From assembly GCA_963693305.1 (NCBI GenBank), contig OY855905.1, positions 19,315,937 to 19,379,936 on the forward strand: 64,000 nucleotides of DNA. The letters run 5' to 3'. The position numbers and the translations under genes were made by a program. The notes beneath the pieces are model-generated. The model was not told the origin of the DNA, searched no databases, and saw only the letters and a list, made by a program, of their open reading frames with translations. Below are positions 41,485-59,966 of this stretch, piece by piece. This stretch comes from Meandrina meandrites (lineage: Eukaryota; Cnidaria; Anthozoa; Scleractinia; Meandrinidae). How positions within the stretch are numbered: the stretch's first letter is position 1; every line of letters begins with the position of its first letter.

Positions 41485-41973
41485 TCAGCCCTTTGTTTCT
41501 GTATCGTTTTTTATATCTTTTTCCAATGAGCTTAACAATTTATGCATTTTTTTATATTTTTGATCAGATTCACTATCAGAATCACTTGATGAATCATTAT
41601 CAGATTCACTTGATGAATCAGGAATAGGATTTATGTTTAAATATCTAACAGCATTGTAATTTTCGGTTTTATATATTTGACTTTCGTAATATGGTTCAAA
41701 ATTATTTTTATTTTTGTAGAACCCGTAATCAGTCACAATTTGCTCTAAAATCTCGTTGTATTGATCGTGGGCTTTCATATTATTTAGCTCAGCTTGAGTT
41801 TCGTCTAATTTATTAGATATTGATCCTTTTTTAGTAAAGAAACGCGACTCCTTTAGTTCATCAATTAATCTGTCAATATTTTCATTTAGTTTTTCATCCT
41901 CATTAATCAAATCATCCTTTTCATTTAGTAAATCCATAATTTTAGCAAATATGAGTAATTCGATGTCGATCAT
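41485..41973 (-). CDS. Acidic coiled-coil protein, paralogue of 58281-58691
   Basis: The frame is open from an ATG at 41991, but the ATG at 41973 is preferred because the TATATATTATAAT motif that precedes genes in this element lies between the two. The protein has about 162 residues: a charged helical first half (ELL..KIMDLLNEK, LKESRFFTKK) and a Ser/Asp-rich tail (SSSESDNDSSSD). The helical part aligns with the gene at the other end of the element, sharing a (S/K)ETRFF/ESRFF motif followed by L-DET. No enzymatic motif is visible. It is transcribed outward, toward the left terminal repeat. Confidence 0.75.
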   Translation of the reverse strand: MIDIELLIFAKIMDLLNEKDDLINEDEKLNENIDRLIDELKESRFFTKKGSISNKLDETQAELNNMKAHDQYNEILEQIVTDYGFYKNKNNFEPYYESQIYKTENYNAVRYLNINPIPDSSSESDNDSSSDSDSESDQKYKKMHKLLSSLEKDIKNDTETKG

Positions 41974-42022
41974 ATTATAATATATATACATATTATTTAT
42001 TTTTTATGTCCGTTTTTTATAA

Positions 42023-42922
42023 TCAATAGATTATACCATAAGCTAGTATATCGTCATTAATTTTTAATAGAATAGCATAATCAATCATTTCACATGTTTT
42101 TATTTTTAATTTACAATCGATGAATTCACTGCTTTTATTTTTTGGGGTTATGAAACCATGTTTATTATTGATTTTAATGAATTCTATATTGAAGATTTTA
42201 TTATATGAATGCAACAAACAATTAAAACCTGTTGTTATTAAATGATTTACATTGTGAAAAAAAATTTTACAATTAATTTTATTGTTCAAGGGTTTGATCG
42301 TTCGGGATTCTCTTCTAAAGACATTAAGGTTTTTTAGTACGTCAAAAAGTGATTCATGACAATTAACACTGTCATTAGACTGAATATTAATATTTAATTT
42401 AGCCGATGTAGGTACTAAATGAATTGTATTGAATTTTATATTTTTATAAGCTTTTATTACCTTATTTTTTATATCTTCGTATTTATTATCGTCATTTAAA
42501 AATTCACATTTATTTAATGCTATTATTATATGGTTTATACCCATCACCCTTGATACTAAAGCGTGATCATACGATTGTTTGATGCTATTATCAATTTCAT
42601 TTTTTTTGGCTGATAAAACAAGTAAAGCTATGTCTGCATGACACGAATTTTGAATGACTTGATTTAATAGAGACAAATGACCTGGATTATTTATGATATT
42701 GAAAGGTTTACCCATTAAATTAAAATGTTCAATTGATGAGTTTAGCGTCATACCACGTTCCTTCTCAGCCTCATCACTATCAATCAAATGAGCAAGCCAA
42801 TTTGTATGTGTATTAATGTTTTTATTTAATTCATTATGTTTTATAGCCGAACTATTTAATAGAATTCTTGCAATAAGAGATGTTTTTCCATTATCCACTG
42901 ATCCGATTACGGATATGTTCAT
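42023..42922 (-). CDS. eEF1A-type translational GTPase-like protein apparently lacking domain II
   Basis: ATG at 42922 is chosen: it starts MNISVIGSVDNGKT and has TATATATATA directly upstream; an ATG 23 codons earlier gives no conserved sequence. It is 299 residues long, against about 460 for eEF1A. G1 is GSVDNGKT (7-14) and the ERGMT switch I is at 55-59. G3 reads NNPGH (78-82), with Asn for the usual Asp. G4 is NKCE (137-140), with Glu for Asp. G5 is SAK (173-175). The region before G4 (HALVSRVMGINHIIIALNK) is close to eEF1A/eRF3/Hbs1. Residues about 215-299 look like eEF1A domain III, ending AYGIIY, so domain II seems missing. Role unknown: perhaps tRNA or ribosome binding, or a non-translational switch. 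Confidence 0.85.
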   Translation of the reverse strand: MNISVIGSVDNGKTSLIARILLNSSAIKHNELNKNINTHTNWLAHLIDSDEAEKERGMTLNSSIEHFNLMGKPFNIINNPGHLSLLNQVIQNSCHADIALLVLSAKKNEIDNSIKQSYDHALVSRVMGINHIIIALNKCEFLNDDNKYEDIKNKVIKAYKNIKFNTIHLVPTSAKLNINIQSNDSVNCHESLFDVLKNLNVFRRESRTIKPLNNKINCKIFFHNVNHLITTGFNCLLHSYNKIFNIEFIKINNKHGFITPKNKSSEFIDCKLKIKTCEMIDYAILLKINDDILAYGIIY

Positions 42923-43020
42923 CGTATGTCTATATATATATACATAGATTTTATTTTTTATGTATATGTTGTGATGTGGTATGATGATCATGTGGATTTT
43001 ATCATATTTATGTATGTATA

Positions 43021-46000: not shown

Positions 46001-46769
46001 GACACCACATAAAGCATTTATTATCATTATTTTTTATGTTGATCAATCCTTTTGCGCTATTTCTAAGCTCATGCGGTAGTTTAATGTATGATGAGCCTTT
46101 TAACGGTTCATATTTTACAAGGTTGATATAATGACCGTCTACGCTTAGAACAGTCCATCCAGATCCTTCTGAAATCCATTGAGCAACGAAATTTAATATC
46201 TGATGTTTAGATATTTGCAGTGATTCTGAAATTTCTTGTTTATTTATGATTATTTGTGCTTTGCTGTTGAAATAGGCTGTTTTATAAATAATGACATCAC
46301 CGATCATTTTTGAAAATGTTACCTTAAGAGTTTCGACGAATTTGATGCCTTTCATTTCATTCAGTAATGAATTGATTTGATGATTTACGACTGATCTTGT
46401 GTTTTGCAATTGTAATAACGGGTCTTCGTGGTTTTTTATATCAATCTCAAAAGACTGTGTATAGCCTCTCAAAGCCTTGTTGACTTGCTTTATTTCTGTC
46501 TTTGAAGCTTGGGTCAGCTTTACTGGTTTTATTGTTTTTGAAATTGGTTCAGGCTTGTAATCATCCCTGAATTCTAATGGCGGAGCAATGATATTTTCTT
46601 CATAATCTTGAACCATATCGCGGACGCTACGCCTGGATTTAGGCTTTGGAGTCCGTGGCTGGTCGGCTTTTAGCGATAATATCAGTTTTATAAGGTCAGT
46701 TTTTGATAGCTTGGCTAGATCTGATTCGTTCATATTAATATTGGTTGAGATAAAATCTTTATTTTCCAT
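43021..46769 (-). CDS. polB: Protein-primed family B DNA polymerase (broken by a frameshift)
   Basis: Replicates the element using a terminal protein primer. The first 1100 residues are intact. They include an N-terminal region with RTPKPK, a C-x2-C...H-x4-C finger (367-387), Exo I YADFE (421-426), a C-x2-C/HNH-like zinc fold (522-554), Exo II FHNLRGYDSHF (571), Exo III YLKSDILLLAD (730), motif A YLDANNLYG (828), motif B KLMNNSVYGKT (992) and motif C DTDS (1092). Shortly after motif C the conserved frame is lost at a run of five T on the sense strand (43441-43445). The family C-terminus continues in the -1 frame to a stop at 43021. The first frame ends at 43308. A one-base loss or an assembly error is most likely; C TTT TTA is not a good slippery heptamer. 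ATG at 46769 follows a TATAGTATAATTA motif. Confidence 0.95.
43441..43445 (-). other. Frameshift point in the polymerase gene
   Basis: Five-base homopolymer at which the conserved reading frame changes by -1. Family-typical sequence resumes immediately afterwards in the other frame. Confidence 0.85.
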
Positions 46770-46989
46770 TAATTATACTATAAATCGTTTTCTCTTTAAG
46801 TCAATTATAGTAAAATTATTTTTTTAGATTTTGTGTGTGTTTAAATTGTTAATGTTATTTATTATATGCAACCAGAAATAATATAATTTTGGTTGCCCAA
46901 ATCAACAATAACAGCATCATATATTTAATACTGTGTAACAGCCAACGGCCTCTACAATATATTGTTACATGATTTGTCTTTAATACGTT
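46770..46989. other. Intergenic region between polymerase and zinc-finger gene
   Basis: Carries the TATAGTATAATTA start motif of the polymerase gene at its left edge. Otherwise AT-rich, with a short GTAACA/TGTTAC inverted pair at 46935-46970. Confidence 0.5.
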
Positions 46990-47214
46990 TCATTCAGCTA
47001 GTATAACATCAAATTTATCATCGTTTTCAAGGCCTTTTAGTATACTGTTAGTAATGTGTTTTTTGGTTGACATATGACTATGCTTACCTGCTAATTTATA
47101 ATCATGATTACAGACAGGACATATCCAACTTTTTGAGAGCATATAGCGTGTTTTAGACTGTTTGATTGCTTCTTTTCTGTCATTTTCATTCAAATACTTA
47201 ATTGGTCTTCCCAT
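46990..47214 (-). CDS. Small C2H2-type zinc-finger protein
   Basis: A 74-residue protein. It starts MGRPIKYLNENDR, a basic leader also seen in small zinc-finger proteins of large DNA viruses (recognised by eye). A single finger follows with Cys-x2-Cys (CPVC, about residues 32-35) and His-x5-His (about residues 46-53). It probably binds nucleic acid or a protein partner. The start is supported by TATATAGTATTATTA just upstream. It faces away from the VLTF3-like gene, sharing the 47215-47748 region. Confidence 0.75.
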   Translation of the reverse strand: MGRPIKYLNENDRKEAIKQSKTRYMLSKSWICPVCNHDYKLAGKHSHMSTKKHITNSILKGLENDDKFDVILAE

Positions 47215-47748
47215 TAATAATACTATATAATTAATTTCTTATGTGTTTTTAAAGTGCGTTAATTTTAGTCATTGCTCTGGTTATTATCTTGGAAGCAAAT
47301 ATGCAAATCAGGGCTAGAACCCCAACGGTTTGTGAAATGATTAATATTTAAAATGCTTCTTAAATCCAAGGTCATAAAAACAGATGCGTAACATGATTAA
47401 TATTCAAAAATGCTTCTGAAAAGTTCTATTATGGTTACAACACATAGCAAAACAATAATATTTTCCTTCTGATAGCATCACGAGATTATTGTATGATTTT
47501 TTTAACCAATCAAAAACTACATATTTTGATTCACAATTGTGAAATATTTTTGTGAAACGTTATTCATTTTGTGAAATATTTTTGTGAAGTAAATTTTACT
47601 CAAAAAGTTTATTCTAAAGTTTACTCAAAAGTTTACTCAAAAGTTTACTCAGAAATTTATACAAGATGGTGAAATCGTCGTCTGCTCTTCAAAATCAAAT
47701 TGATGGAATGGTACAAACAAATTTTTTGTAATATATTTATATAAGAAG
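47215..47748. promoter_or_regulatory. Divergent promoter region with tandem repeats
   Basis: Lies between the zinc-finger gene (-) and the VLTF3-like gene (+). TATATAGT- and TAATATATTTATATAA-type motifs flank the two start codons. Inside are a repeated ATGATTAATATT-A-AAATGCTTCT block (47336 and 47392), two TGTGAAATATTTTTGTGAA copies (47537-47588) and four AAAGTTTACTCA copies (47608-47652). The repeats may be regulatory or replicative. Confidence 0.5.
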
Positions 47749-48306
47749 ATGGAATGCAATAAGCAGATACATAGCGAACTAATGACAATGAATGTAAGTG
47801 AATGCCCTTTCTGTGATCAACTATTGAAAGAAGGTGATAAATTGGTTGACCAATGTTGTGATAAACAGGATATTTTAGAAGATGCCTATTCAACAGTATG
47901 CCAAAATTGCGGTACCCAAAGTTATAAATGTATCTCCAATTATATCGATTTTTATGAAAATATGTTTCGTATTCGGCGCCGATCGACATATAATCGAAAA
48001 TATCATATCGATAACGTTTTGAACGATATTTGTTATAAGCATCGAATTAATTTGACTCATACTCAGATAGATAAAATACATGAATTGTTTAGAGTAATAG
48101 GCAACGTTATTCCTTCAGTTAATAAACTCCGAAGACGAATGATCAGCACTAAATATATCCTCAGGCAGTTATTTAAATTACTTGATCTTCCATTTGAATG
48201 TATAAAGATTACTGAATCGAGAAAAACGCTTGAATTTTATAATCGATATTGGGCAAAGATTTTAGAATTGAAATTTGATAGTATCATACACATTATTAGA
48301 CAGTGA
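47749..48306 (+). CDS. VLTF3-like late transcription factor
   Basis: 185 residues. A zinc-binding N-terminus has CPFC (19-22), CC (36-37) and CQNCG (51-55). The core has the pattern RRRSTYNRKYHI, then LRRRMISTKYILRQLFKLL, and an FYNRYW motif near the C-terminus. This arrangement is that of viral late transcription factor 3 proteins of poxviruses and other large DNA viruses, which also occur in some Polinton-like viruses (established; recognised by eye). It would direct late capsid gene expression, perhaps through the TATATA motifs before the genes here. It overlaps the membrane-protein gene tail to tail by 11 bases. Confidence 0.8.
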   Translation: MECNKQIHSELMTMNVSECPFCDQLLKEGDKLVDQCCDKQDILEDAYSTVCQNCGTQSYKCISNYIDFYENMFRIRRRSTYNRKYHIDNVLNDICYKHRINLTHTQIDKIHELFRVIGNVIPSVNKLRRRMISTKYILRQLFKLLDLPFECIKITESRKTLEFYNRYWAKILELKFDSIIHIIRQ

Positions 48307-48784
48307 ATTTTTTGTCGTATTTAAGCAGATACCGATCGATTATTGGACTGTTATCACTTATGTAGTCATCGGTGTTTTTCATCGTTATTAGGATATTGGA
48401 TAGGTTGAATTCACCCGTTCGCAAAATAAATTTTATTGTGTTAAGTATATGCATATAGGATTGGTATGCATATATACAATTTTGAATTTTCAAATCGAGA
48501 TTCTGATGCTGAAGCCAGCCTTGTATCAATAAAGCACCCGTGCTGATTGCAGTCAGGCTGATTCCGCCAGTTGAAATGGACGATACAATACCCCCCGAAG
48601 CAAATAAAATAGCCAGCGAATTGCCTGTAAATTTCAGCCTTCTAAAGCTTTTTGTAGCTTGTTTATAACACCAATATTTCTTATGGTATGCAATGTAGTA
48701 TTGTTTCAATTCTTGAATTTGCGATTGATTTAACTTGTCACTGATATGGTTCCATTCGAATATATTTTTGCGTTGTTTCGGCAT
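48296..48784 (-). CDS. Two-helix membrane protein of unknown function
   Basis: 162 residues. A basic, helical N-terminal part (about 1-50) precedes a hydrophobic, Gly/Ser-rich stretch at about 54-92 that can form two close membrane helices. A helical C-terminal half follows. No signal peptide or enzyme motif. The topology resembles SLATT-type two-helix proteins or small viral membrane proteins, but that is shape only. ATG follows CATATAATATAT. It may sit in the virion inner membrane or act in exit or entry; unknown. Confidence 0.7.
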   Translation of the reverse strand: MPKQRKNIFEWNHISDKLNQSQIQELKQYYIAYHKKYWCYKQATKSFRRLKFTGNSLAILFASGGIVSSISTGGISLTAISTGALLIQGWLQHQNLDLKIQNCIYAYQSYMHILNTIKFILRTGEFNLSNILITMKNTDDYISDNSPIIDRYLLKYDKKFTV

Positions 48785-48842
48785 ATATATTATATGCTTA
48801 GACTATGCTTTATTTCTTTAATTTTTTACAATAAAGCAATTT

Positions 48843-51005
48843 TTATTCGAAGAATACACCCTTTGTTTTGTCTAAAAATTGAATTTTATGGTACTCTTTA
48901 TTATTTATTGGGTATACAGATTTACTAAAACCGATTCTTTGTAAATTGTAATCTGAAGTGATTTTAATGATTGAAGCATTGATATTAAACCCAGAAAATG
49001 TTTGATCAATACTCATAGCATTATTGCATACAGCGATTCTGAATTGACCCGCAATTTTAGTATACCAGAGATTTAAATATTCTCCTATATAAGCATCTCT
49101 AATTTGCTTAGAATATACATCTAAATCATAATCGAGAAATAACTTACCAGACTCTAATTTCACCCATGGAAAATCAAAACTACCATCATTGCCTAATTCT
49201 ATTTTAATTCTTTTACTATCACCAGATTTATAATCGTATTTAAACGCAATATATATAGTCCAGTCATCAGATCCAGTTACATTTTCAGTTAAATTAACTA
49301 TGAAAACACCTGTAAACCCATCTCTTGGCTTAAATTCTTTTAACAATTTCGTAGTTTGAAAAACGAGATTACTACCTAAGCCAGACAGTACTGCACCGAA
49401 GCTGTCTGACATGGTGAATTCAGATGGATCCAGTAAATCAAAAAAGTATTCAAATATTGTTTTGTAATAGCTTTTTGGTTGTGATGATTTTATTTCATTT
49501 TTTAATTGTAATAAATTAACCACAGATTTGTCAGTAGTGCCTGCTTCAACATTAATGATCTGTTTGTCGTTCATATTGACAATTTTTTCAAAGTAAATAT
49601 TATCATTTTCGAAATACATGAAACTGTCATAAACACTACTATCAACATTTTCAACATAACCTATCACTCCATAAAATATCAAATAACAAGGAACCCATTC
49701 ATTGTTGAAATCTGTTGGTACATCATGTTTTTTATCGAAATCAATGTCAATATAGAGAACTCCATGATCACTGTTTTTATGTATATGAATCAAATATTTA
49801 TTATATTCAGAAAAATTTTTGTCTGTTTTATTACCTACATTGATTGATGTTGACTGAATGAATAATTCAGTGTTAATATTCCAATGTGGAAACAGCTCGC
49901 AAACAATAGTATATTCACCATGATTAAGAGCCCCACAATCGATACTTACTCTTCCACGATACCAATATATCAATCCATTAGTTTCAGGTTTGACTTCTCT
50001 ATTTATTTCGAAACTAACAAGATGAAGATTGATATGATGTATTTTGAAATCCTTTTCAATCAATGAAAGATTTCTTGTTTTGAATTCCGTTTTCCATAAT
50101 GATCGGTTTAGTGTGAAAGAAAAAACATTTTTTCTTATGACAGATTGTTTTATTTTAACTTGATTAACAAGATCGACGGCAAATTTTTTGGTAGCGGCGT
50201 CTGAATCGACACTGGGGTCTTGTAAATTTGTAATTGTATTTTTATTCATATCCAAATTTGAAAGCATTTTATTATCACCTAATACTGAAAGAGCAGTCAA
50301 ATCAACATATGCTTTATTAGCACCCTGAAGATGAGTAGAAGGTGTACTCAGATTATTAATATATTGATTATTCATATCAAGTGGTGCTGACATTTTATTA
50401 ACACCATTTCTTAGCAAAACATCAGTTTTATCAGCTTTTTTAAAGTCTTGACTGTCAATATACCCTTTATTCATGACATTGGACATATTAGAATACCCAT
50501 CATCAAAATCAGGAACATTTATGATGCTTTTGAATGTTTGCTCGTTATTTGTGGTTAAGTCAGCCTTATTAACAAATTTCAAGTCAACTTCAGCTTTTAC
50601 AGTTTCAATATGGTCTCTATTCATTGTATTGGCTAGGTGGATAGAGCTATCAACATACCCTTTATTTATTAGCGTTTTATTGTTCGAAGAATTTTGGTCA
50701 AAATCCTCGCTATTTTGTATTGATAAACCACGTAAATCGTAATATACTCCTGTCTTGTCCCTTTTTAAAAAGTGGTTTATCAGGTATTCTTTATTGACAC
50801 CACTCTGATAATCACGTTTTATACTTTCAAAATCGCTATCATCTGGTACATCTGCTTGAGTCTTGATATTGTACATTGCTTTTCCATGCATATCATAATC
50901 GCCCGAGGGAGTTAGCTTAAAACCGACTCCATCCTTGCCATCCTTACCTTTAATACCTGCTATATTGTTGTTATTTGATTGTAAAAGTCCGTTTGAGTAA
51001 CTCAT
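48843..51005 (-). CDS. Fibre-like virion protein with tail-fibre repeats
   Basis: 720 residues. A short collagen-like GIKGKDGKDG segment (17-26) is followed by at least three repeats of the type LDMNNxxIxNLxxPxxxxxAxxKxYVD (for example near 210-235 and 250-280). These are similar to units in phage tail fibres that trimerise as beta structures. The C-terminal half (from about 290) is beta-rich and may form jelly-roll or adhesive domains. Likely a spike or host-attachment protein on the capsid. Start supported by TATATATAA before the ATG. It lies 15 bp from the packaging ATPase gene on the same strand. Confidence 0.75.
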   Translation of the reverse strand: MSYSNGLLQSNNNNIAGIKGKDGKDGVGFKLTPSGDYDMHGKAMYNIKTQADVPDDSDFESIKRDYQSGVNKEYLINHFLKRDKTGVYYDLRGLSIQNSEDFDQNSSNNKTLINKGYVDSSIHLANTMNRDHIETVKAEVDLKFVNKADLTTNNEQTFKSIINVPDFDDGYSNMSNVMNKGYIDSQDFKKADKTDVLLRNGVNKMSAPLDMNNQYINNLSTPSTHLQGANKAYVDLTALSVLGDNKMLSNLDMNKNTITNLQDPSVDSDAATKKFAVDLVNQVKIKQSVIRKNVFSFTLNRSLWKTEFKTRNLSLIEKDFKIHHINLHLVSFEINREVKPETNGLIYWYRGRVSIDCGALNHGEYTIVCELFPHWNINTELFIQSTSINVGNKTDKNFSEYNKYLIHIHKNSDHGVLYIDIDFDKKHDVPTDFNNEWVPCYLIFYGVIGYVENVDSSVYDSFMYFENDNIYFEKIVNMNDKQIINVEAGTTDKSVVNLLQLKNEIKSSQPKSYYKTIFEYFFDLLDPSEFTMSDSFGAVLSGLGSNLVFQTTKLLKEFKPRDGFTGVFIVNLTENVTGSDDWTIYIAFKYDYKSGDSKRIKIELGNDGSFDFPWVKLESGKLFLDYDLDVYSKQIRDAYIGEYLNLWYTKIAGQFRIAVCNNAMSIDQTFSGFNINASIIKITSDYNLQRIGFSKSVYPINNKEYHKIQFLDKTKGVFFE

Positions 51006-51020
51006 TTATATATATGTAAG

Positions 51021-51662
51021 TTATATTTTTTCATTGAAATTCTTAGTTACGAATTTACGTGGTTTATCAATATATAAAAAGCTAAATGGCTCTTTAGTTG
51101 CTTTTAGATAGTCCTTTTTGTTGATTCCAAGCTCTCTGCAAATCATAGATTGTTCATTATTAGACGGAAATTCAAAAATACAATGATGAGTGCTATTTAG
51201 ACGGATAGTTTTATCTGTATTGTAAAAGGATTGGCTTATATATATACAAGAACAATTTTTATTTCTTGAATTCGTAAAATAGTTGCGTATTTCGCTATCA
51301 TTTTTTGATCCCGTATTGAGATAATCGTCAAAGATAGCTATTTTTTGTCCTTGATCTGAGATTTCATCGAGTGGTATAATCCCATCATTACTGATCTCAA
51401 TAATATCATAACCAACTTCTTCATTGATAGGTGCAAAGGTTTTTAACAAGTGCTCAATTTTTGACTGTTGTGGATTTTTAGTATAGAGATAGATCTTGTC
51501 GAAATACAATAATCTATATATCATGTCTAGCAAGAGATTGGTTTTTCCCGATCCGCTTGGACCTGTCAATAATAAGCGATAGCATTTATTAGGCATAAAA
51601 TCATATAACTGCTTGAATTTTGATTGCTCATCGTCTTCGATATCGTAATTCAATATTTTCAT
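51021..51662 (-). CDS. Genome packaging ATPase (FtsK/HerA, A32-like)
   Basis: Pumps DNA into the capsid. 213 residues from the ATG at 51662; an ATG 16 codons earlier is open but the TATACATATACG motif sits directly before 51662. Walker A is GPSGSGKT (about residues 33-40). Walker B is KIAIFDDYL (about 111-119). A downstream polar motif (YISQSF) fits the sensor of A32-type ATPases. Size and motifs are normal for the Polinton ATPase. It appears intact. Divergent from the PPxY-protein gene. Confidence 0.93.
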   Translation of the reverse strand: MKILNYDIEDDEQSKFKQLYDFMPNKCYRLLLTGPSGSGKTNLLLDMIYRLLYFDKIYLYTKNPQQSKIEHLLKTFAPINEEVGYDIIEISNDGIIPLDEISDQGQKIAIFDDYLNTGSKNDSEIRNYFTNSRNKNCSCIYISQSFYNTDKTIRLNSTHHCIFEFPSNNEQSMICRELGINKKDYLKATKEPFSFLYIDKPRKFVTKNFNEKI

Positions 51663-51774
51663 TATACATATACGATGGATAATTTTGTAGTTCAACACCG
51701 TGTTGTACACCGTGTTAAATGTTATTTTTTATATACGATTTTCATTTTTTATATAACGTAATAATATAACAATA
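51663..51774. promoter_or_regulatory. Divergent promoter between the ATPase and the virion gene cluster
   Basis: Both edges carry AT motifs next to the start codons (TATACATATACG; TAATAATATAAC). The middle has two copies of ACACCGTGTT (51698-51707, 51709-51718), each nearly palindromic, a possible binding site for a dimeric regulator. Confidence 0.55.
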
Positions 51775-52782
51775 ATGAGCTTACTTAAATGGCAACAACT
51801 TGCTAAAAGCAAATCTAAAATAGGTGATAAGATTAATTATACTCGGGATGTTATCACAAAGCATAAAATAGGGCAACAGACTGACCAAGAGACATTTGGA
51901 CGGTTATTCAAACCTGTTACTACTAAATTAGATGATGTGATTGATAGCAATCTTTATAGGATGCTTCCAAGGAGAAAGCATCCTGTTAAAAAGGTTGAAG
52001 TTCCAGATTACGGTATTCGTGTTGAAGATGATGTTGAAGACATGAATTTGGGTGATATATTTGATGAACAACCAGTCTTGCCAGAATCGGAGAAACAGAT
52101 TGCATTAAAACCTCCGACATATGATGAATCTATGAAAGATCTTTTGGTCGGTAAAAAAAAGATATATGTTGATCCCCAATATTTTCCACAGGATCAGGAG
52201 CTTCCACCTGAATATGATGACGATGAAGTACCAGATTATGCAATTGATGATGATGATATTATAAAAGAACAGTTAGATGATATAGGTGTAGCTAACTATG
52301 ATAGTGTTGATATGTTCCTAAGTCAACCTGAAATGACCCCTAAAAAATCTAAAATTTATCTTAAAAAGATTTTGAATGATGCTTCATTTAAGAGAAATCA
52401 GCTGAAAGGTTATAAGTCTAGTGTCACAAAGGATTATCACAGGGGTTATATATCTGATGCTGAGAGGCAATATAGAAATAAACGTATTGATAATGCAAGA
52501 AAGATCTTAAATGAATATATCAATCATTATGAACATAAGGTTGCAACAATGAAAGGTTCTGGAATCAAAAATCGAAAACAGCACGGAGGCAATGTTATGT
52601 TTTTCAATGATCCAAAGAAGCTCCTCAATAAATTGGAATTGATTATTGGCTCGTTAAATGCTGGTAATACATCGATTCAGATGAGAAATACGGGTGTTTA
52701 TATATTAGATACGTTATTGAAAATGGCAACAATCAATAGATCTCAATATAAAAAATTGTATAATCAGTACTTTAAAATTTGA
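51775..52782 (+). CDS. Virion-associated protein with two PPxY motifs
   Basis: 335 residues. The basic N-terminus is followed by an acidic middle containing PPTYDES (113-119) and LPPEYDDD (143-150), both PPxY late-domain consensus. VPDY-acidic segments occur twice (76-86, 152-162). The conserved C-terminal 70 residues (FFNDPKKLLNKLELIIG...YKKLYNQYF) match a helical domain common in cnidarian Polinton proteins (recognised by eye). PPxY motifs recruit NEDD4-type ubiquitin ligases; adenovirus protein VI uses one during entry. A comparable role is inference. First gene of the right-hand structural cluster; AT motif precedes the ATG. Confidence 0.75.
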   Translation: MSLLKWQQLAKSKSKIGDKINYTRDVITKHKIGQQTDQETFGRLFKPVTTKLDDVIDSNLYRMLPRRKHPVKKVEVPDYGIRVEDDVEDMNLGDIFDEQPVLPESEKQIALKPPTYDESMKDLLVGKKKIYVDPQYFPQDQELPPEYDDDEVPDYAIDDDDIIKEQLDDIGVANYDSVDMFLSQPEMTPKKSKIYLKKILNDASFKRNQLKGYKSSVTKDYHRGYISDAERQYRNKRIDNARKILNEYINHYEHKVATMKGSGIKNRKQHGGNVMFFNDPKKLLNKLELIIGSLNAGNTSIQMRNTGVYILDTLLKMATINRSQYKKLYNQYFKI

Positions 52783-52807
52783 TTTATGTAACAATATTAT
52801 ATAATAT

Positions 52808-53572
52808 ATGGAACGAGAAATTGTTTTATCCTCTTATAGTGTTAAAAATAAAGAGAGCAATAAGCCTGAGAATTTTTTGACTAGGTTTAACAAACCGATT
52901 ACACTAGATAGTAATTACGATTATGAGATTGGACTCAATCGTATAATTAACATGTCATTTACTTGGTTTAATTTGAATTCTGATTATGGAAATCAGCTTA
53001 TTAAATACAGTTCTGATAATGGTTCAATATTTAATGACATTACTTTTCCTCAAGGTGTTTGGAATTATACGGATTTTGATGATCATATTAAAGAAATCAC
53101 CAAGAAAGGAGATGATGATGATCCAACATATCCAATCACTCTTGAATTCGATTCAACAACATTTAGGGTCACAGTTACATTGGCTACCAATTACCAACTT
53201 GATTTGAGTCAAAGCAATTTTAATGAACTAGTCGGTTTCGATAAACAAATATTGAAAGATGATGTTAATATTGGTCAAAGAGTCCCAAATCTCTCTCAAG
53301 ATACTGATATATTAAATATTCATTGCGATCTCGTCAATACATCATAAGTTGATGGCGAAGAATCAGATATCATTTATACCTTTTCAACAAGTGTTTTACA
53401 ACCAAGCTTTAGCTTTACAATAGAGCCTCGTAGGGTTACATATAACCCAGTTAATAAGCAACGTATAAGCAGTATCAGGATATACATAACAGATGGAAAA
53501 AGACGATTAATTAACTTGAATGGTGCTGACACGTCTTTTTCATTGATTCTGAGAAAGGTAACAATTATGTAA
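52808..53572 (+). pseudogene. Minor capsid (penton) protein interrupted by a TAA codon
   Basis: The first 179 codons start MEREIVLSSYSVKNKESNKPENF, typical of the Polinton single jelly-roll penton protein that fills capsid vertices. At 53345-53347 an in-frame TAA stops it. The same frame then runs 74 more codons with family-typical beta strands (EPRRVTYNPVN, ADTSFSLILRK) to a stop at 53570-53572. So this is one gene with a single nonsense change, unless the stop is read through; the codon context is not a known strong read-through signal. Start supported by ATTATATAATAT. Confidence 0.85.
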
Positions 53573-53586
53573 CTTAATTGTATATA

Positions 53587-53964
53587 ATGAAACCATATGA
53601 ATTCAAAAGGTATTACCATCCAAGACTAGGTAAATTCGTATATAAACACAAAGGCTCTGGAATCATCGTTGATAACATTTTTAAACCAATTCAGAAGGCT
53701 ATGTCAACTGTTGTTAAAAAGGTTGTTAAACCCATTGGTAAGAGGGCTTTAAAATCAGGAATATCAAAAGCCAGTAAACAGATTGAAAAAAAGATATCAG
53801 AGAAGTCAGGTGACCTAATTATGAAGAGGCTTCATAATATGAAATCACTCCCACCCATGAAAAACCAACAGCAAAAAACAACTAAAGCTAGTGAAAAAAA
53901 ACGACAAGAGAGTACTGACATGATTATCAATCATCTTATTTCTGGTAATGGATTGAGACGTTGA
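53587..53964 (+). CDS. Basic amphipathic virion core protein
   Basis: 125 residues from ATG 53587, right after TGTATATA. The N-terminus is aromatic and basic (KPYEFKRYYHPRLGKFVYKH), followed by long amphipathic basic helices (VVKKVVKPIGKRALKSGISKASKQIEKKI). This fits Polinton/adenovirus minor core proteins (pX or VI-like) that condense DNA or disrupt membranes, but no specific family is certain. Between the penton and major capsid genes, 23 bp before the latter. Confidence 0.7.
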   Translation: MKPYEFKRYYHPRLGKFVYKHKGSGIIVDNIFKPIQKAMSTVVKKVVKPIGKRALKSGISKASKQIEKKISEKSGDLIMKRLHNMKSLPPMKNQQQKTTKASEKKRQESTDMIINHLISGNGLRR

Positions 53965-53987
53965 TTTTTATCTAAACTAATAATATA

Positions 53988-55242
53988 ATGTCTTTTAGAT
54001 CAAGTGAGCTTTTACAAAGGACCGAATTGGTTCGATTTCAACTCGATGATGTGATTAGAACACCCGATAATGACCAACATCAATCAAAAAACGGTTATAA
54101 ATTTACGGTAAACGATCGGTCAACATTTTTCGATTGGTATAATGCATTCTTTGAGGTACAATTTCAAGTTCAAAAAAGAGCAGATGGAGCTACTACTGGA
54201 GCAGATCGGGTTACTGTAATCAATGGGGCTCATTCGCTCATAAAACATATGATGATTAAAAGTGCTGGTAAAATTGTTTATGATACCGATAACCTGCATA
54301 AAGTCACTTTTGTTAAGAACCTACTCGAATATAGTGATGATTACAGTCGATCAGTAGCCAAGAATAGTCTTTGGTATCTCGATACAGATTCTTCCACAGC
54401 AAATACCAACCTGGGCTTCGAGGCTCGACGATTATTGACCACAGGATTAAATGATGTTAATGTCTTAATACCACTGAATCGGTACTCGTTTTTTGAAGAA
54501 CTAGAGTCTCGAATGCTTGTTCCCATGCAACTACAGTTCAATATTCATCTCCAGAATGATAGCGAATTGATTTATCAAGCCGCAGGAGACCATCATCGTG
54601 TTGTCGTCAACAGGTTTCTTTTATGGGTACCAAAATTAATCCCAAAAGACAGCTTATATGATAAGTTTGTCAGTTCATTTTTAACAAAGAATACATGGAA
54701 ATATAGCAGAGAAATGTATGAAGTATCACCATCTACAAGAAGTAGCGGTTTTTTTCCAGATAAGCAGTAGTATTGATAATGTTAAGGCAATATTTATTTA
54801 TTTTCAAAGAAATAGAACAAATCTCGCAACCCAAAATCCGTATTTATTCGATACTTATAAAATTAATGTTGATAACAATGCAAGTTATTTATCTACATGC
54901 AGATTAGAATATGGTAACGGTTTATATTATCCAGAAACTGAATACGACACTGAGTCTAAAGTCAGAATTTTTAACGACCTTATGGCATATGGGATGCGTA
55001 AAAATGATTATAACACAGGTACCCAACTCAACATGTCAAATTACAACAGTCTATATGGGCTGATTTTCTTCGATTTATCATTTCAACCTGAAAGGATAAC
55101 TAGGGATCCTAAACAATTAATATTTCGCTATAAACTCAGCGCAAACAGTGCAGTCAACAGCCCTTTCAGTGTCCATGCCGTCGTATTTTATGATAAAGAA
55201 GTCATTATTGATCAAGTAGGAAATGAACTTGTTATTGTGTAA
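53988..55242 (+). CDS. Major capsid protein (double jelly-roll), frameshifted
   Basis: Forms the hexameric capsomers. The first frame (53988-54770) holds the first jelly-roll, starting MSFRSSELLQRTELVRFQLDD and including an FFDWYNAFFEVQF strand. The second part lies in the +1 frame up to 55242 and contains NMSNYNSLYGLIFFDLSFQ and the last strand with FRYKLSANSA. The switch occurs in a run of seven T (54749-54755), where one extra T explains the change. The direction needed (+1) does not match -1 slippage, so this is damage or an assembly error. TAATATA precedes the ATG. Confidence 0.93.
54749..54755 (+). other. Frameshift point in the major capsid gene
   Basis: Seven-T run; the frame before it ends eight codons later while the rest of the capsid protein continues in the +1 frame. 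Confidence 0.85.
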
Positions 55243-55319
55243 ATCTTTTTTCAAAAGTCAGTAATTTTTAGTTAAAACAAATATGTTTTATAACGAAATT
55301 TATATAACATATAATATAT

Positions 55320-55802
55320 ATGACTACTTATCATTCACATAAAGTAAATCTTTCAGAAGGACAAAGAAATAAGCTTTTGACTGCTCACAACAATAAAAGT
55401 GGAATCACTATTCGTTTAAACAAATCAAATATCACAGGAAATGACAGTTTGATGCTTACCAAACGACAAATAAATAAATTAAATTAAGCCAAAAAATCAG
55501 GTATCGGTTCTGATTTGAAAATCTCACAGACTCAAATTCGAAAAGTCATTGGTGGTGGAGCGCCACGAATTGGTATTTTTCCATCAATAGGAGTCAGCGT
55601 TCCAAGACAAAGATCAAGAAGATCAACGACTACGAATCAACCCACAAAAACAAAAAAAGATGGTGGAAGAATCATGAGTAAGAAAGATGCATTGTCTTAT
55701 AGGACTCCACCATTTATTGGTACATGGGATCAATACAATAAATTCTTGAAAACTGTAGGATTAGTGCTTCCAAAAAAAAAGATCTTAAAACCAAAAAAGT
55801 GA
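55320..55802 (+). pseudogene. Second basic core protein interrupted by a TAA codon
   Basis: From ATG 55320 (after CATATAATATAT) 55 codons read MTTYHSHKVNLSEGQRNKL..., the start of a well-known Polinton core/pX-like protein with SGITIRL and LTKRQINKL motifs. TAA at 55485-55487 interrupts it. The same frame continues 104 codons with the family motif DLKISQTQIRKV, a basic Arg/Ser/Thr-rich part and a C-terminal PPFIGTWDQYNKF, ending at TGA 55800-55802. Likely binds the genome in the virion. Its end carries the slippery heptamer from which the protease could be made, though the internal stop would block that route in this copy. Confidence 0.8.
55793..55799 (+). promoter_or_regulatory. Putative -1 ribosomal frameshift site (A AAA AAG)
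   Basis: In the frame of the core protein the last two sense codons are AAA AAG, preceded by A and followed by the stop TGA. This is a canonical slippery heptamer. A -1 slip leads into the protease frame, which has no ATG. A second A-rich run (nine A, 55772-55780) lies upstream. No strong downstream stem is visible. Confidence 0.55.
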
Positions 55803-56266
55803 ATAAGCCTAAATTCATCAAAAAACCTCTGAGCAATATTGATTTATCAAGATGGTGTGATTATCTCGGAATAAAAATTAATGGTATTTTCAGTAGAGAT
55901 GAACATATGCATGAAGATCATACCCCGTGTATTATTAATTTGGATGACTATGAAGGTGTTGGCACTCATTGGACTTGTTGTGTGCCTGGTCATAATAAAA
56001 GAACATTGTGGTATTTCGATAGTTTTGGGATGCCTTACCCAAATGAATTTAAAAAGACAGCTGAGAAAGATGGAATAAAACAAATTTTGTATAATAGCAC
56101 GCAATATCAACATATCAAATCAGTTCTTTGTGGGTATTATTGTCTTTATTTCTTGCATCAAGCATTGGTGTATGATAAAGAGTATCTCGATATATTAATG
56201 CCATTATCAATGACTGACACAATGTACAATGAACGTTTTATAAACAATTATTTCAGAAATATATAA
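55799..56266 (+). CDS. Adenain-like cysteine protease (maturation protease)
   Basis: Cleaves virion precursor proteins during maturation. About 155 residues counting from GTG 55799. The triad is His in GTHW (57), Asp in YFDSFG (74) and Cys in SVLCGYYC (111), with a Gln at about 102-104 for the oxyanion hole; this is the C5/Ulp1-type order. There is no ATG before the conserved region and no AT promoter motif. The frame overlaps the end of the core gene in -1 and is open upstream, so translation probably depends on frameshifting from that gene; GTG start or stop-restart at GTGA is the alternative. The enzyme itself is intact. Confidence 0.9.
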   Translation: MNKPKFIKKPLSNIDLSRWCDYLGIKINGIFSRDEHMHEDHTPCIINLDDYEGVGTHWTCCVPGHNKRTLWYFDSFGMPYPNEFKKTAEKDGIKQILYNSTQYQHIKSVLCGYYCLYFLHQALVYDKEYLDILMPLSMTDTMYNERFINNYFRNI

Positions 56267-56278
56267 CTCATATATATA

Positions 56279-56707
56279 ATGGTCAAATCTTATTGCGTGC
56301 GTGAAAAAACAAAAACTGATTCAGTTCCTGATTCTGAAAAATACGTGAGAACAAAAAACAATCGTTTAATGCTCAAATCGAAATGCGCTTCTTGTGGAAT
56401 AACCAAAACTCGTTTTGTAAGTGAGAAAAAGGGACGAGGAGTCGGACAAACCATCAACAAAAAGATTGGTGATAAGATTCCAGGGTTTCAACAGTCTCAA
56501 GACGTTGCATCCTTTATAATGGGCCTTACAGGAGGTGATAAGAAGCTTTTTGATAAGTACTGGAGTGGTGATATTGCCAAGGGGGCTTTCAATAAGAAGA
56601 CTGGATTATTTTCAAAAAAATTCTGGACCCATCCCAAGGATACAACCAGCCCATGTAATCGAGTTGTGTTTAAAAATGGAAAATGGCATAACGAATATTG
56701 CGATTAA
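56279..56707 (+). CDS. Zinc-ribbon protein, relative of the next gene's N-terminus
   Basis: 142 residues. It starts MVKSYCVREKTKTDS; residues 1-50 parallel the start of the protein encoded at 56733 (KSYCV...TDS, KNxRLM, CxxC). The first Cys pair is reduced to one Cys (CVRE), so zinc binding may be altered; CASC is kept. The C-terminal part (DKKLFDKYWSGDIAKG; SPCNRVVFKNGKWH) is unknown. A similar N-terminus is common in cnidarian Polintons (recognised by eye). Start after CATATATATA. Confidence 0.7.
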   Translation: MVKSYCVREKTKTDSVPDSEKYVRTKNNRLMLKSKCASCGITKTRFVSEKKGRGVGQTINKKIGDKIPGFQQSQDVASFIMGLTGGDKKLFDKYWSGDIAKGAFNKKTGLFSKKFWTHPKDTTSPCNRVVFKNGKWHNEYCD

Positions 56708-56732
56708 ATATATAATCTATTTGTATATAAAG

Positions 56733-57287
56733 ATGTGTAAATCATATTGTGTCACGTGTAAAAAAAATACTGATTCAATAAATCCTAAAAAAGTCAAAGC
56801 AAAGAATGGTCGACTTATGGAGAAAGCAACTTGCACCATATGCCACAAAGGCAAGGCTAAATTCATCAAAAATGCGCAATCGGGAGGAGCATTTGATATT
56901 CATAAAGCTATTTTAAAAGTAGCACCAAAAAAGGGTTTTGTAATACCTGGACATAAATACACGGGACCAGGTAATCCTCTTGAAAAACAGGTAAAATGGG
57001 ATCCAAAAACAGGAAAAATACTTGAGATATATGAACAACCAACTGGTAGAACAGATGCTGTCAGTATGCAACATGATGTAGATTACACTGTATGTACAAC
57101 CAAATCATCAAAAGATCAAGTCAAATGTAAAAATGAGGCTGATCGGAAGATGGTAAAATCACTTGATGTTATCCCTTGGAAGGACAGACAATGGGGTCAT
57201 GCTGTTGCTCGAAATGCTATTGCTTCAAAAGCTAAACTCGGTCTTGGTGTAAAAAAAAGGAAGTCAAAAAACGGAAAACGGCGTTGA
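56733..57287 (+). CDS. Zinc-ribbon plus phospholipase A2 virion protein
   Basis: 184 residues. Residues 1-45 form a ribbon with CVTC (6-9) and CTIC (34-37). A PLA2 core of the parvovirus VP1 type follows: Ca-binding loop YTGPGN (76-81) and catalytic HDVDY (114-118), with Cys and acidic residues after it. Such enzymes breach endosomal membranes during virus entry (known for parvoviruses; role here inferred). The Lys/Arg-rich C-terminus (VKKRKSKNGKRR) may be a nuclear signal and also encodes the slippery site leading into the integrase. ATG 56733 follows TTGTATATAAAG. Confidence 0.85.
   Translation: MCKSYCVTCKKNTDSINPKKVKAKNGRLMEKATCTICHKGKAKFIKNAQSGGAFDIHKAILKVAPKKGFVIPGHKYTGPGNPLEKQVKWDPKTGKILEIYEQPTGRTDAVSMQHDVDYTVCTTKSSKDQVKCKNEADRKMVKSLDVIPWKDRQWGHAVARNAIASKAKLGLGVKKRKSKNGKRR
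57266..57272 (+). promoter_or_regulatory. Putative -1 ribosomal frameshift site (A AAA AAC) with stem
   Basis: In-frame codons AAA AAC preceded by A: the heptamer used, for example, at the MMTV gag-pro junction. The PLA2 stop follows 12 bases later. Seven bases downstream a stem can form: GGCGTTGAG (57280-57288) with CTCAAC (57303-57308) and GCC (57314-57316), with a 5-base bulge. A -1 slip enters the integrase frame. Confidence 0.6.
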
Positions 57288-58231
57288 GTAAAAATGATTG
57301 GTCTCAACAATTAGCCGATGAGTTACATAAACCAATCAAACGAAAATTTAAAACTAGAAGAGTAATATCAAATGGAATTGACGAGATATGGTGTTCGGAT
57401 TTGGTCGAAATGCAACAGTTCAGTAAATGGAACAAGGGATTCAGATATCTTCTCATGGTTTTAGATGTATTCTCTAAATACGGTTGGATCATCCCATTAA
57501 AAGACAAAAAAGGTGAATCTGTAACACAAGCATTCAAAACAATATTCAAAGAGGGGCGTAAACCACAATATCTTTGGACAGACAAGGGCAAAGAGTATTA
57601 TAACAAACACTTGAAAGACCTCTTAGAAAAGAATAAAATAACATTGTACTCAACTGAAAATGAGGAAAAATCCAGTGTTTGTGAACGATGGAACCGCACA
57701 ATAAAAACTAAGATGTGGAAGCAGTTCACTGGTCAAGGTAATACGCAGTATTTAGATATGTTACCAAAATTAGTTAAACAGTATAACAACACTAAACATA
57801 GCTCTATCAAAATGACGCCCATAGAAGCAAGTAAAAAGAAGAATGAAGGTACAGTTTACTTCAATCTATATGGTGATATGGAGCCATTATCAGCTAAACC
57901 AAAATTCAAGGTTGGTGACAAGGTCCGAATATCAAAGTATAAACGGAAGGTGTTCGACAAGGGCTATACACCAAATTGGTCAGAAGAGATATTCATAATT
58001 GATAAGATCCAAAACACTAATCCCATAACTTACAAATTGAAAGATCTCAATAATGAAGAAATACAAGGTAGCTTTTATGAACCTGAACTGTTAAAAGCAA
58101 AACAGGATGTATTCAGAATTGATAAAGTCATTCGGAGGGATTATAAGAAGAAACAAGCTTTAGTCAAATGGAAGGGATATAGTGATGAATTTAACAGCTG
58201 GATACCTATGAAAGATTTACAAAATATATAA
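57284..58231 (+). CDS. int: Retroviral-type (rve) integrase with chromodomain
   Basis: Inserts the element into the genome. The conserved part begins LADELHKPIKRKF and NGIDEIWCSD. Catalytic Asp39 (WCSD), Asp100 (WTDKG) and Glu134 (CERWNR) form the DDE triad, with 33 residues between the last two. The core is followed by a beta-rich domain (KFKVGDKVRISK) and a C-terminal chromodomain (about 273-315, FRIDKVI...VKWKGY...SWIP), which may guide target choice. There is no ATG at the start (the frame opens at TTG 57284 and is open upstream), no AT motif, and it overlaps the PLA2 gene in the -1 frame, so a PLA2-integrase fusion by frameshifting is likely. The sequence is intact. Confidence 0.93.
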   Translation: MSKNDWSQQLADELHKPIKRKFKTRRVISNGIDEIWCSDLVEMQQFSKWNKGFRYLLMVLDVFSKYGWIIPLKDKKGESVTQAFKTIFKEGRKPQYLWTDKGKEYYNKHLKDLLEKNKITLYSTENEEKSSVCERWNRTIKTKMWKQFTGQGNTQYLDMLPKLVKQYNNTKHSSIKMTPIEASKKKNEGTVYFNLYGDMEPLSAKPKFKVGDKVRISKYKRKVFDKGYTPNWSEEIFIIDKIQNTNPITYKLKDLNNEEIQGSFYEPELLKAKQDVFRIDKVIRRDYKKKQALVKWKGYSDEFNSWIPMKDLQNI

Positions 58232-58280
58232 ACGCATCAAAAAATAAAACATATAAAAAAATCTCATATAATAATATAAC

Positions 58281-58691
58281 ATGACTGAATACGAAATAGC
58301 TAAAAATGCCATCAACAATCTTTTGAACAGCGAAACGAGTAAACAAGAAATCGAACTTGCAATCCTGGTAGAATACATGTCTCTTCTAAAAGAAAAACAC
58401 GAAATTTCCAAAAGAATCACAGTAATAAAAACTGAATTAGATGAAATCCATGAAAAAATGTCAGAAACTCGATTCTTTTCATATAATGATCACAATGAAG
58501 TAACCCTTTTACATAATTTAGATGAAACAGGGGTCGATTTACGTGATGACGAGGATGATTATACTCATTATGGCCTTAGAAAACTCGTAAATAATATTCC
58601 AAAAAAGAATTCAAAAAAGATGGCAATGCCATTAACAAATTTCAAATCCGACAAAAAAAGTACTTGTTCAGATTCAGATTCAGAGGATTGA
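58281..58691 (+). CDS. Coiled-coil protein, paralogue of 41485-41973
   Basis: 136 residues. A helical, charged first half (IELAILVEYMSLLKEK...ELDEIHEKMSETRFF) aligns with the gene near the left end. A short basic and a Ser/Asp tail (CSDSDSED) mirror its acidic tail. No known domain. ATATAATAATATAAC precedes the ATG. Transcribed outward, toward the right terminal repeat. Confidence 0.75.
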   Translation: MTEYEIAKNAINNLLNSETSKQEIELAILVEYMSLLKEKHEISKRITVIKTELDEIHEKMSETRFFSYNDHNEVTLLHNLDETGVDLRDDEDDYTHYGLRKLVNNIPKKNSKKMAMPLTNFKSDKKSTCSDSDSED

Positions 58692-58935
58692 AAAACCAAG
58701 ATCTGATTTCATCGCTGGAACGCACAAAGAACCAAATTTTGTAAAAAGACTATAAGAGCATTTAATTAATGAAGTTTGATTTTTTAAATCAAACATCATA
58801 AGCTTTGCTTTTGTTTAGTCCAATACAATATCATGATTAGATTTTCAAGAATTGATTTAATATAAAATATATAGATCAAATAAAACGCAGTAAAATCACA
58901 TAAAAAATTAATATCTAACATCATAATATATAACT
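58692..58935. other. Intergenic region with AACGCA repeat
   Basis: Contains GGAACGCACAAAGAACCAAATTTT...AAAAAGACTATA (58719-58755), related to blocks at 59332 and 59411, and an AATCAAACATCATAAGC region. The promoter motif ATAATATATAAC lies just before 58936. Confidence 0.5.
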
Positions 58936-59322
58936 ATGGGACTCTTTGAACATCAATTACATAATCAATTTAAATTCAATGAATCTCCCACCAAAGGAGC
59001 TTCATCTGCTATTAAATTCCTTTCAAGCATGGACAATGTTCAAAATTTAAATGAGAAAATAAAAAACAACCTAAATACAATTTCAAAAATAATAGATGAA
59101 ATTCAAAAATTAAAAAAATCAACATTTGATCTTGAAGACATATATAAATTAAATCATAAAATTTCAGACACATTTAAAATTATAAAAGAATTAGATAAAA
59201 ATCTCGGATGCGTATCCATAAAACTTGTAAAACTAGAAGAAGATTTATCCCATTGCCCACTGAATAAATACATCAGCATATCAATCAACAATGGAACCAT
59301 ATCTATCAATGAAAATAAATAA
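58936..59322 (+). CDS. Small coiled-coil protein of unknown function
   Basis: 128 residues, mostly helical with heptad-like spacing (LNEKIKNNLNTISKIIDEIQKLKK; TFKIIKELDKNL) and a short beta-like end (ISISINNGTISI). No family is recognised. CATAATATATAAC sits directly before ATG 58936. Last gene before the right terminal repeat. Confidence 0.65.
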   Translation: MGLFEHQLHNQFKFNESPTKGASSAIKFLSSMDNVQNLNEKIKNNLNTISKIIDEIQKLKKSTFDLEDIYKLNHKISDTFKIIKELDKNLGCVSIKLVKLEEDLSHCPLNKYISISINNGTISINENK

Positions 59323-59331
59323 TCCATCAAA

Positions 59332-59434
59332 CGCACAATCCTCCAAAATTAGAAAAATACTATAAAAGATTTTGAACCCATAGCAATTTCCAGATTTGAT
59401 CCAGCGTTTTAAACGCACTAACAACCAAAATTTG
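59332..59434. repeat. Subterminal AACGCAC...AAAATTTG...ACTATA repeats
   Basis: Two related blocks (59332-59366, 59411-59446), a third at 58719-58755. Each lies after a gene end or at the terminal repeat edge; may be 3' processing or replication signals. Confidence 0.5.
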
Positions 59435-59960
59435 AAAAAGACTATAGATTTGTTTTTATTATATAGTATCAGGATTTAATTTCATGCGTGGTTATAGACT
59501 CTTACGTATCATGTTTATCTATAAAAAGAGCTCGTCTAATACCATGTAGATGATAGTCCTGGTGTTAAAAACTCACTTTGATCCCAATTTTAAAAAAACA
59601 GTATAGATTTATTTTTGTAAAAAGAGTATAGATTTATTTTTGATCCATATCTGGATTCAGTAATTAAATTCTATATTTAAAAGCACTAATATCCCAATTT
59701 TTTTTAAAAACAGTATAAGACAGTTTTTTTTATCCAGCATTTTAAAATAATTGATCTTCAAAAAGCTTAGCTTTTTAAAGAACATATAATTTTCCAGTTT
59801 TGTATTCATTTTTGTATTAAGTTTTATTTCAGAGTACTTGACCAAAAAAACCAGAGTAATTTTCAAAGATTAATTTCAAAGCGAACGCAAATTTTCAAAT
59901 AAAATCCAACGCAATTTTCAATCTATTTTTTGCTCTCGAACCCCCAAGTACTATACTACT
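59435..59960 (-). repeat. Right terminal inverted repeat (526 bp)
   Basis: Inverse of 40373-40898, ends ...ATACTACT with the terminal CT typical of Polintons, then TAAGCA. Confidence 0.95.
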
Positions 59961-59966
59961 TAAGCA
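59961..59966 (+). repeat. Polinton target site duplication, right (TAAGCA)
   Basis: Identical to 40367-40372. Confidence 0.95.

What the first reader, a model, noticed from the sequence alone, without database searches (positions are those of the whole stretch)
55793..57290. Protease and integrase both apparently made by -1 ribosomal frameshifting
Protease and integrase are the only two genes in the element without an ATG start and without the TATATA-like start motif. Both lie in the -1 frame of the preceding gene and overlap its stop. Each upstream gene ends with a canonical in-frame heptamer, A AAA AAG and A AAA AAC. The second is followed after 7 bases by a possible stem. Retroviruses express Pro and integrase this way; a parallel in a capsid-bearing DNA transposon would be new to me. 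It would tether protease to a core protein and integrase to a phospholipase, bringing both into the virion.
Basis: partly seen in the sequence, partly recalled or inferred. Interest (0 to 1): 0.9.

Follow-up and report, generated by a model that had tools for sequence, protein, structure and literature searches.

The report
Polinton integrase made by ribosomal frameshifting
A virus-like DNA transposon in an animal genome (probably a coral) seems to make its integrase, and perhaps its protease, by having ribosomes slip back one base at the end of the preceding gene, a trick best known from retroviruses and bacterial insertion sequences.

Summary
Observation confirmed. The window holds a 19.6-kb Polinton (536-nt TIRs, 6-bp TSD, viral DNA polymerase, packaging ATPase, integrase). 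Protease and integrase lie in the -1 frame of the preceding ORF and have no usable ATG. The host genome carries many more copies, and these tested the idea.

Integrase: in 84 of 109 anchored copies it is -1 to the PLA2 gene (14 are +1, 11 in frame). In 82 of those 84, A AAA AAC sits in the PLA2 frame, although the 0-frame stop lies at three different places. Integrase dN/dS among 24 -1 copies is about 0.07-0.09. In 53 of 82 copies a 14-nt arm 7 nt after the heptamer pairs (11 or more of 14) with a downstream arm; synonymous resampling almost never gives this. The window's own lineage has only a possible pseudoknot. I take -1 ribosomal frameshifting to a PLA2-integrase fusion as very likely.

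Protease: -1 is common (45 of 72), but the named heptamer is present in only 19 of 38 main-family -1 copies. The shared feature is an A-run about 20 nt upstream, no structure follows it, and a distant family is +1/-2 (10 of 12). Ribosomal frameshifting or transcriptional slippage both fit. Nothing was shown by experiment.

The parts
40372..59961 (.). Polinton element: 536-nt inverted repeats (40372-40907 and 59426-59961, 5 mismatches); the 6-bp direct repeat TAAGCA stands at 40367-40372 and 59961-59966, so its inner base is shared with the repeat as found
55320..55802 (+). core-protein-like ORF (0 frame of the protease junction); in-frame TAA at 55485-55487 in this copy
   Evidence: relative P0126 is open over this part
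55772..55780 (+). A9 run, the shared slip candidate of the protease junction (in relatives mostly A9 or A12: -1; A10: in frame; A8 or A11: +1)
55793..55799 (+).
55742..56266 (+). protease open frame, -1 to the core ORF, no ATG before the domain; Peptidase_C5 (adenovirus protease) match below the cut-off
56733..57287 (+). DUF5679 + phospholipase A2-like ORF (0 frame of the integrase junction)
57266..57272 (+). A AAA AAC slippery heptamer in the PLA2 frame, present in 82 of 84 -1 copies
57283..57308 (+). possible stem 1 GTTGAG/CTCAAC, 10 nt after the heptamer; its loop holds TGATTGGT (57295-57302)
57331..57338 (+). ACCAATCA, complementary to TGATTGGT in the loop: possible stem 2 of an H-type pseudoknot
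57236..58231 (+). integrase open frame (rve + chromo), -1 to PLA2, first Met at about residue 43 counted from 57284

Best explanation
The integrase of this Polinton group is translated as a C-terminal extension of the PLA2 protein. Some ribosomes reading the PLA2 ORF slip back one base on A AAA AAC, helped by an RNA structure just downstream (a long stem 7 nt away in most -1 copies, possibly a pseudoknot in the window's lineage), and go on in the integrase frame; the rest stop and make PLA2 alone. The protease is probably made in a similar way from the core-protein ORF, at an A-run; there the shift may be ribosomal or come from slippage of the RNA polymerase. Shown by sequence: frames, heptamer, lack of a start codon, complementarity, selection on the ORFs. 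Inferred: the slip itself, its rate, the fusion proteins and their fate.
For: Integrase -1 in 84 of 109 copies; A AAA AAC in the 0 frame in 82 of 84 (the same letters 1 and 2 nt out of phase: 11 and 0), at 15-33 nt from the GLG codon, after TCA 44, CCA 29, AAA 5, ACA 2, GCA 1, GTA 1. The 0-frame stop is 0, 12 or 39 nt after the heptamer by lineage. 24 -1 integrases: median dN/dS 0.07-0.09 at dS above 0.3. No ATG, CTG, GTG, TTG, ACG, ATT, ATC or ATA in the integrase frame before the domain in 45 of 82. A 14-nt arm at spacer 7 pairs at 11 or more of 14 positions (G-U counted) in 53 of 82; a 12-bp stem is reached in 0 or 1 of 400 synonymous resamplings for each of five copies. PLA2 proteins of other contigs carry the same 0-frame reading of the integrase start. 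In print: A_AAA_AAC is among the most shifty heptamers on mammalian ribosomes, and many studies use spacers of 5-9 nt (PMC5009743, passages seen). Protease: -1 in 45 of 72 copies; in 22 -1 copies with a long ORF dN/dS medians are 0.16-0.29 and no ATG precedes the matched domain.
Against: 25 of 109 integrase junctions are not -1; 11 are in frame (one of them, L121, with a stop between), and in-frame fusions exist on other contigs (P0002, P0003, P0012). The integrase stem shows no covariation: permuting 3' arms among copies leaves pairing unchanged (0.938 against 0.935). The window's own copy has no unusual MFE (113 of 400 resamplings as low; z -0.92), its pseudoknot is only suggestive (9 of 400) and its spacer is 10 nt. 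One mixed-lineage RNAalifold run gave a weak structure (-2.6 kcal/mol; 1 of 60 column shuffles as low). The window copy is damaged. No RNA, ribosome-profiling or protein evidence was available.
Confidence: 0.8

Rival explanations
1. RNA-polymerase (transcriptional) slippage on A-runs yields a mixed mRNA pool, so protease and integrase are made from mRNAs with one A more or less. (The odds given for rivals are for at least one of the two junctions, so they overlap with the best explanation.)
For: The protease junction is an A-run whose length varies between copies, and one family needs the opposite shift, which slippage can give as easily. No stem follows the protease run.
Against: At the integrase the conserved element is A6 followed by C, kept in copies that have no long A-run upstream (L032, L035, L038), in one phase in 82 of 84, and followed at a fixed distance by a stem in 53 of 82.
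Confidence: 0.15
2. The frames differ only because of mutational decay or homopolymer errors in the assembly; working elements have in-frame fusions, as P0003 or P0122 do.
For: In-frame fusions exist at both junctions in relatives, and copies in the genome differ between states by A-run length. The window copy has other lesions.
Against: -1 is the majority state at both junctions in the copies read. 17 of 25 non -1 integrase junctions have a -1 copy as nearest neighbour, and the six non -1 copies on a tree of 30 integrases fall in five places. Integrase and protease ORFs are under purifying selection in the -1 state, and the heptamer keeps its phase while the distance before it varies.
Confidence: 0.06
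3. Termination-reinitiation at TTGA/GTGA or non-AUG initiation starts the integrase and protease.
For: TTGA and GTGA overlaps exist in the window.
Against: The TTGA overlap occurs in 24 of 82 -1 integrase copies; in 52 the 0-frame stop lies 39 nt after the heptamer, inside the integrase, and in 6 it follows the heptamer directly. 45 of 82 have none of the seven near-cognate codons looked for. For the protease this was not counted beyond ATG.
Confidence: 0.05
4. An intron joins PLA2 to integrase and core to protease.
For: A gene model of Oculina patagonica joins the two across this junction (P0057).
Against: That model skips integrase residues which are invariant in the 24 proteins aligned. Splice sites were not scanned systematically.
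Confidence: 0.04

Closest known systems
Retroviral Gag-Pro / Pol -1 frameshifting
   Same: A heptamer of the same class (A_AAA_AAC is listed among the most shifty in work on retroviral and coronaviral frameshifting; PMC5009743, passages), a spacer and a stem or pseudoknot; retroviruses also make protease and integrase this way (family knowledge).
   Different: The carrier is a DNA element with its own DNA polymerase; the upstream ORF is a PLA2-like or core protein, not Gag; each enzyme has its own junction.
Bacterial insertion sequences with -1 frameshifting (IS3/IS911 group)
   Same: DNA transposons that make their transposase by frameshifting; wide use in bacterial IS elements is stated in PMC8310308 (passage). 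The -1 detail for IS911 is recalled.
   Different: Bacterial ribosomes; one two-ORF transposase; no capsid genes.
Adintovirus Penton and Hexon-Adenain slippery sites (KnotInFrame suggestion, PMC11071296, passages seen)
   Same: Related polinton-like animal viruses; a possible -1 shift that adds an alternative C-terminus, or joins the protease to a capsid protein.
   Different: Different genes (Penton, Hexon); the passage calls it hypothetical; integrase is not named in it.

Membership tests
-1 programmed ribosomal frameshifting (integrase junction) | X XXY YYZ heptamer in the 0 frame | tested here: met
   A AAA AAC in the window and in 82 of 84 -1 copies
-1 programmed ribosomal frameshifting (integrase junction) | downstream ORF in -1 frame without its own start | tested here: met
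-1 programmed ribosomal frameshifting (integrase junction) | structure about 5-9 nt downstream, in the related copies | tested here: met
   53 of 82 -1 copies at spacer 7; beyond synonymous resampling in the five copies with an uninterrupted 12-bp stem; no covariation support
-1 programmed ribosomal frameshifting (integrase junction) | structure about 5-9 nt downstream, in the window itself | tested here: inconclusive
   possible pseudoknot at 10 nt, 9 of 400 resamplings as good; MFE not unusual
-1 programmed ribosomal frameshifting (integrase junction) | measured frameshift product | not testable with these tools
   needs a reporter assay or peptides
-1 programmed ribosomal frameshifting (protease junction) | conserved heptamer and frame | tested here: inconclusive
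   -1 in 45 of 72 copies, but A-run length varies, the named heptamer is in 19 of 38, and family D is +1/-2
-1 programmed ribosomal frameshifting (protease junction) | downstream structure | tested here: not met
   median z 0.46 in 17 main-family copies; about 0 in 6 family-C copies
Polinton/Maverick | viral type B DNA polymerase, rve integrase, packaging ATPase, protease | tested here: met
   PF03175, PF00665 + PF00385, PF04665 above cut-off; protease below it (PF00770, E 0.008), relatives P0202, P0223 and P0236 above it
Polinton/Maverick | long TIRs and 6-bp target duplication | tested here: met
   536 nt, 5 mismatches; TAAGCA on both sides
Polinton/Maverick | major and minor capsid proteins | tested here: inconclusive
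   no Pfam match for the ORFs of 52808-55242; folds were not predicted

The most novel reading that the evidence does not exclude
Polintons of animals use retrovirus-style recoding at two separate junctions, so that both the maturation protease and the integrase are made as minority C-terminal extensions of proteins destined for the particle (core protein; PLA2), which sets their dose and brings both enzymes into the virion. The two junctions use different signals, and the protease signal has changed direction between families.
Probability: 0.35. Interest if true: 0.9.

Novelty: new variant of a known kind. Interest (0 to 1): 0.78.

Why it matters
Relatively few eukaryotic DNA viruses are known to use ribosomal frameshifting (PMC8310308, passage seen), and I found none described for a Polinton integrase in the searches listed. 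It would link the rve integrases of retroviruses and Polintons also by the way they are expressed, explain why gene finders truncate Polinton integrases and proteases, and give a testable route by which an integrase could enter a DNA-virus particle.

Tried and rejected
Sequencing error or simple decay was my first reading, after in-frame fused relatives turned up; the copy census reversed it. IMG/VR scans with the integrase gave no confirmed locus; with the protease alignment they gave two distant loci (37% identity), of which L198 has its own ATG and L197 is cut at its start. RNAalifold over all lineages together gave a weak structure. Permuting stem arms gave no covariation. A first structure test at the protease cut at least one copy (L047) at a wrong A-run; it was repeated with anchored sites, with the same outcome. 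The share of fused clusters among database proteins was not used as a rate: cluster sizes are not copy counts, and the length window excludes fused proteins from the PLA2 search.

Not in print: searches (open-licence PubMed Central only) showed no report of frameshifting for a Polinton integrase. Subscription papers are not covered, and most hits were seen only as search listings; passages were read in PMC11071296, PMC10120064, PMC8097293, PMC8310308, PMC5009743 and PMC11071308, no paper as a whole.
Full report
What is there. The window carries an element bounded by 536-nt inverted repeats (5 mismatches) and a TAAGCA duplication. It encodes a viral type B DNA polymerase, a Pox_A32-like ATPase, two DUF5679 proteins, one of them with a phospholipase A2-like domain, and an rve-chromo integrase, so it is a Polinton. 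The protease matches Peptidase_C5 only below the cut-off (E 0.008), while its relatives P0202, P0223 and P0236 pass it.

The two junctions. Database relatives first suggested decay: some encode PLA2 and integrase, or core and protease, as one in-frame protein whose linker resembles the window's -1 reading (P0002, P0003, P0012; P0122, P0126, P0135). This needed DNA of many copies.

Census at the integrase. The host genome (551 Mb) gave 126 integrase matches (a lower bound). I read the junction in the window and in the 109 other copies whose match begins at residue 5 or earlier; the 16 matches that begin later were not fetched. Of these 110, one (L073) has no recognisable PLA2 upstream and was dropped; six needed an anchor typed by hand. 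Of the 109 left, 84 are -1, 14 are +1 and 11 are in frame (one of these, L121, with a stop between); as distinct junction sequences 60, 14 and 11. In 82 of the 84 an A AAA AAC stands in the PLA2 frame; the exceptions are L113 (A AAA AAT) and L092 (a stop just before the run). The same letters 1 nt out of phase occur in 11 and 2 nt out of phase in 0. The codon before it is TCA 44, CCA 29, AAA 5, ACA 2, GCA 1, GTA 1, so the amino acid changes while the final A, part of the heptamer, stays. The distance from the GLG codon to the heptamer varies from 15 to 33 nt while the phase is kept.

Why not decay. Among 24 -1 integrases (one, L003, with a stop) median dN/dS is 0.07-0.09 at dS above 0.3. On a tree of 30 integrases the six non -1 copies fall in five places (the tree cannot tell gain from loss, and the labels are no more clustered than shuffled ones). 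17 of 25 non -1 junctions have a -1 copy as nearest neighbour, often differing in an A-run.

Why not a separate start. The first Met in the integrase frame comes after residues invariant in 24 aligned proteins; 45 of 82 -1 copies have none of seven near-cognate codons either. The 0-frame stop is TGA 12 nt after the heptamer (24 copies, the window's TTGA lineage), TAG 39 nt after it (52) or TAG directly after it (6), so a stop-start overlap is not a shared feature.

Structure. In 53 of 82 -1 copies the 14 nt beginning 7 nt after the heptamer can pair at 11 or more positions, G-U counted (36 copies at all 14), with an arm 70-73 nt after the heptamer; in the other 29 the best arm pairs at 7-10. 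For five copies (L050, L051, L055, L068, L076) an uninterrupted stem of 12 bp was reached in 0 or 1 of 400 synonymous resamplings; for L058 an 8-bp stem in 5 and for L105 a 7-bp stem in 71, though L105's MFE was reached in only 2. Over 50 distinct downstream stretches the median z against shuffles is -1.97. Against this, the arms hardly vary and permuting them between copies does not lower pairing, so covariation gives no support. The window's lineage lacks this stem. It has GTTGAG/CTCAAC 10 nt after the heptamer with TGATTGGT in the loop complementary to ACCAATCA downstream, complete in 21 of 24 copies; 7, 9 and 13 of 400 resamplings reach this in three copies tested, and the MFE alone is not unusual.

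Other contigs. PLA2 proteins of many other contigs, mostly of unnamed species, end in tails such as KSKNGKGRRVKKTGKKN, which is the 0-frame reading of the integrase start; a pattern for KN followed by G, V and the like fits 88 of the 120 listed clusters, the window's own among them. The length window of that search excludes in-frame fusions, so this is not a rate, and some contigs may be of the same species as the window.

Protease. The protease search gave 150 matches, of 705 candidates. In the window and 40 copies, 35 could be anchored (six show no protease): 24 are -1, 7 are +1, 4 in frame (core anchors are weak for nine of them, among them the eight of a divergent family C). In 37 more copies: 21, 10, 6. 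-1 copies mostly have an A9 or A12 run after CC, in-frame ones mostly A10, +1 ones mostly A8 or A11. Family C has A AAA AAC about 50 nt before the domain (-1 in 6 of 8). Family B (69-71% identity; 8 of the 9 listed without inner stops fetched) is -1 in 5, in frame in 2, +1 in 1. Family D (12 of 79 listed fetched) is +1/-2 in 10, -1 in 1, in frame in 1. No structure was found downstream. Selection on 22 -1 proteases is purifying (median dN/dS 0.16-0.29). So a frame change is regularly needed, but its mechanism is not settled.

Reading. A_AAA_AAC is listed among the most shifty -1 heptamers on mammalian ribosomes, with spacers of 5-9 nt in many studies, whereas the passages report A_AAA_AAG as very shifty in E. 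coli (PMC5009743, passages). A preprint on animal viruses proposes, from KnotInFrame, slippery sites in adintovirus Penton and a similar relation for Hexon-Adenain (PMC11071296, passages), so recoding in this virus group has been suggested, but not for integrase in what I saw.

Noticed in passing
53988-55242: The capsid-like ORF is split into two overlapping frames near a T7 run at 54749, which looks like a lesion of this copy.
   Followed up: no
52805-53572: The ORF before it has a TAG at 53345-53347 with the same frame open on both sides.
   Followed up: no
43021-43311 and 43308-46769 (- strand): A second ORF overlaps the end of the DNA polymerase in another frame; possibly a frameshifted C-terminus.
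   Followed up: no
L148-L159: A GC-richer protease family (45-50% identity, 79 listed matches) has the protease in the +1/-2 frame of its core ORF at an A-run (mostly CAA AAA AAA GCC) in 10 of 12 copies read.
   Followed up: partly
L105, L108, L116, L123 and two more copies: The 0-frame stop TAG follows the A AAA AAC heptamer directly (6 of 82 -1 copies).
   Followed up: partly
P0057, P0312, P0318: Annotated Oculina patagonica proteins appear to join PLA2 to later integrase parts while skipping the junction, probably a gene-model artefact of the frame change.
   Followed up: no
L031-L070: Copies with nearly the same integrase junction carry quite different proteases (L046 against L031), which suggests module exchange between elements.
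   Followed up: no
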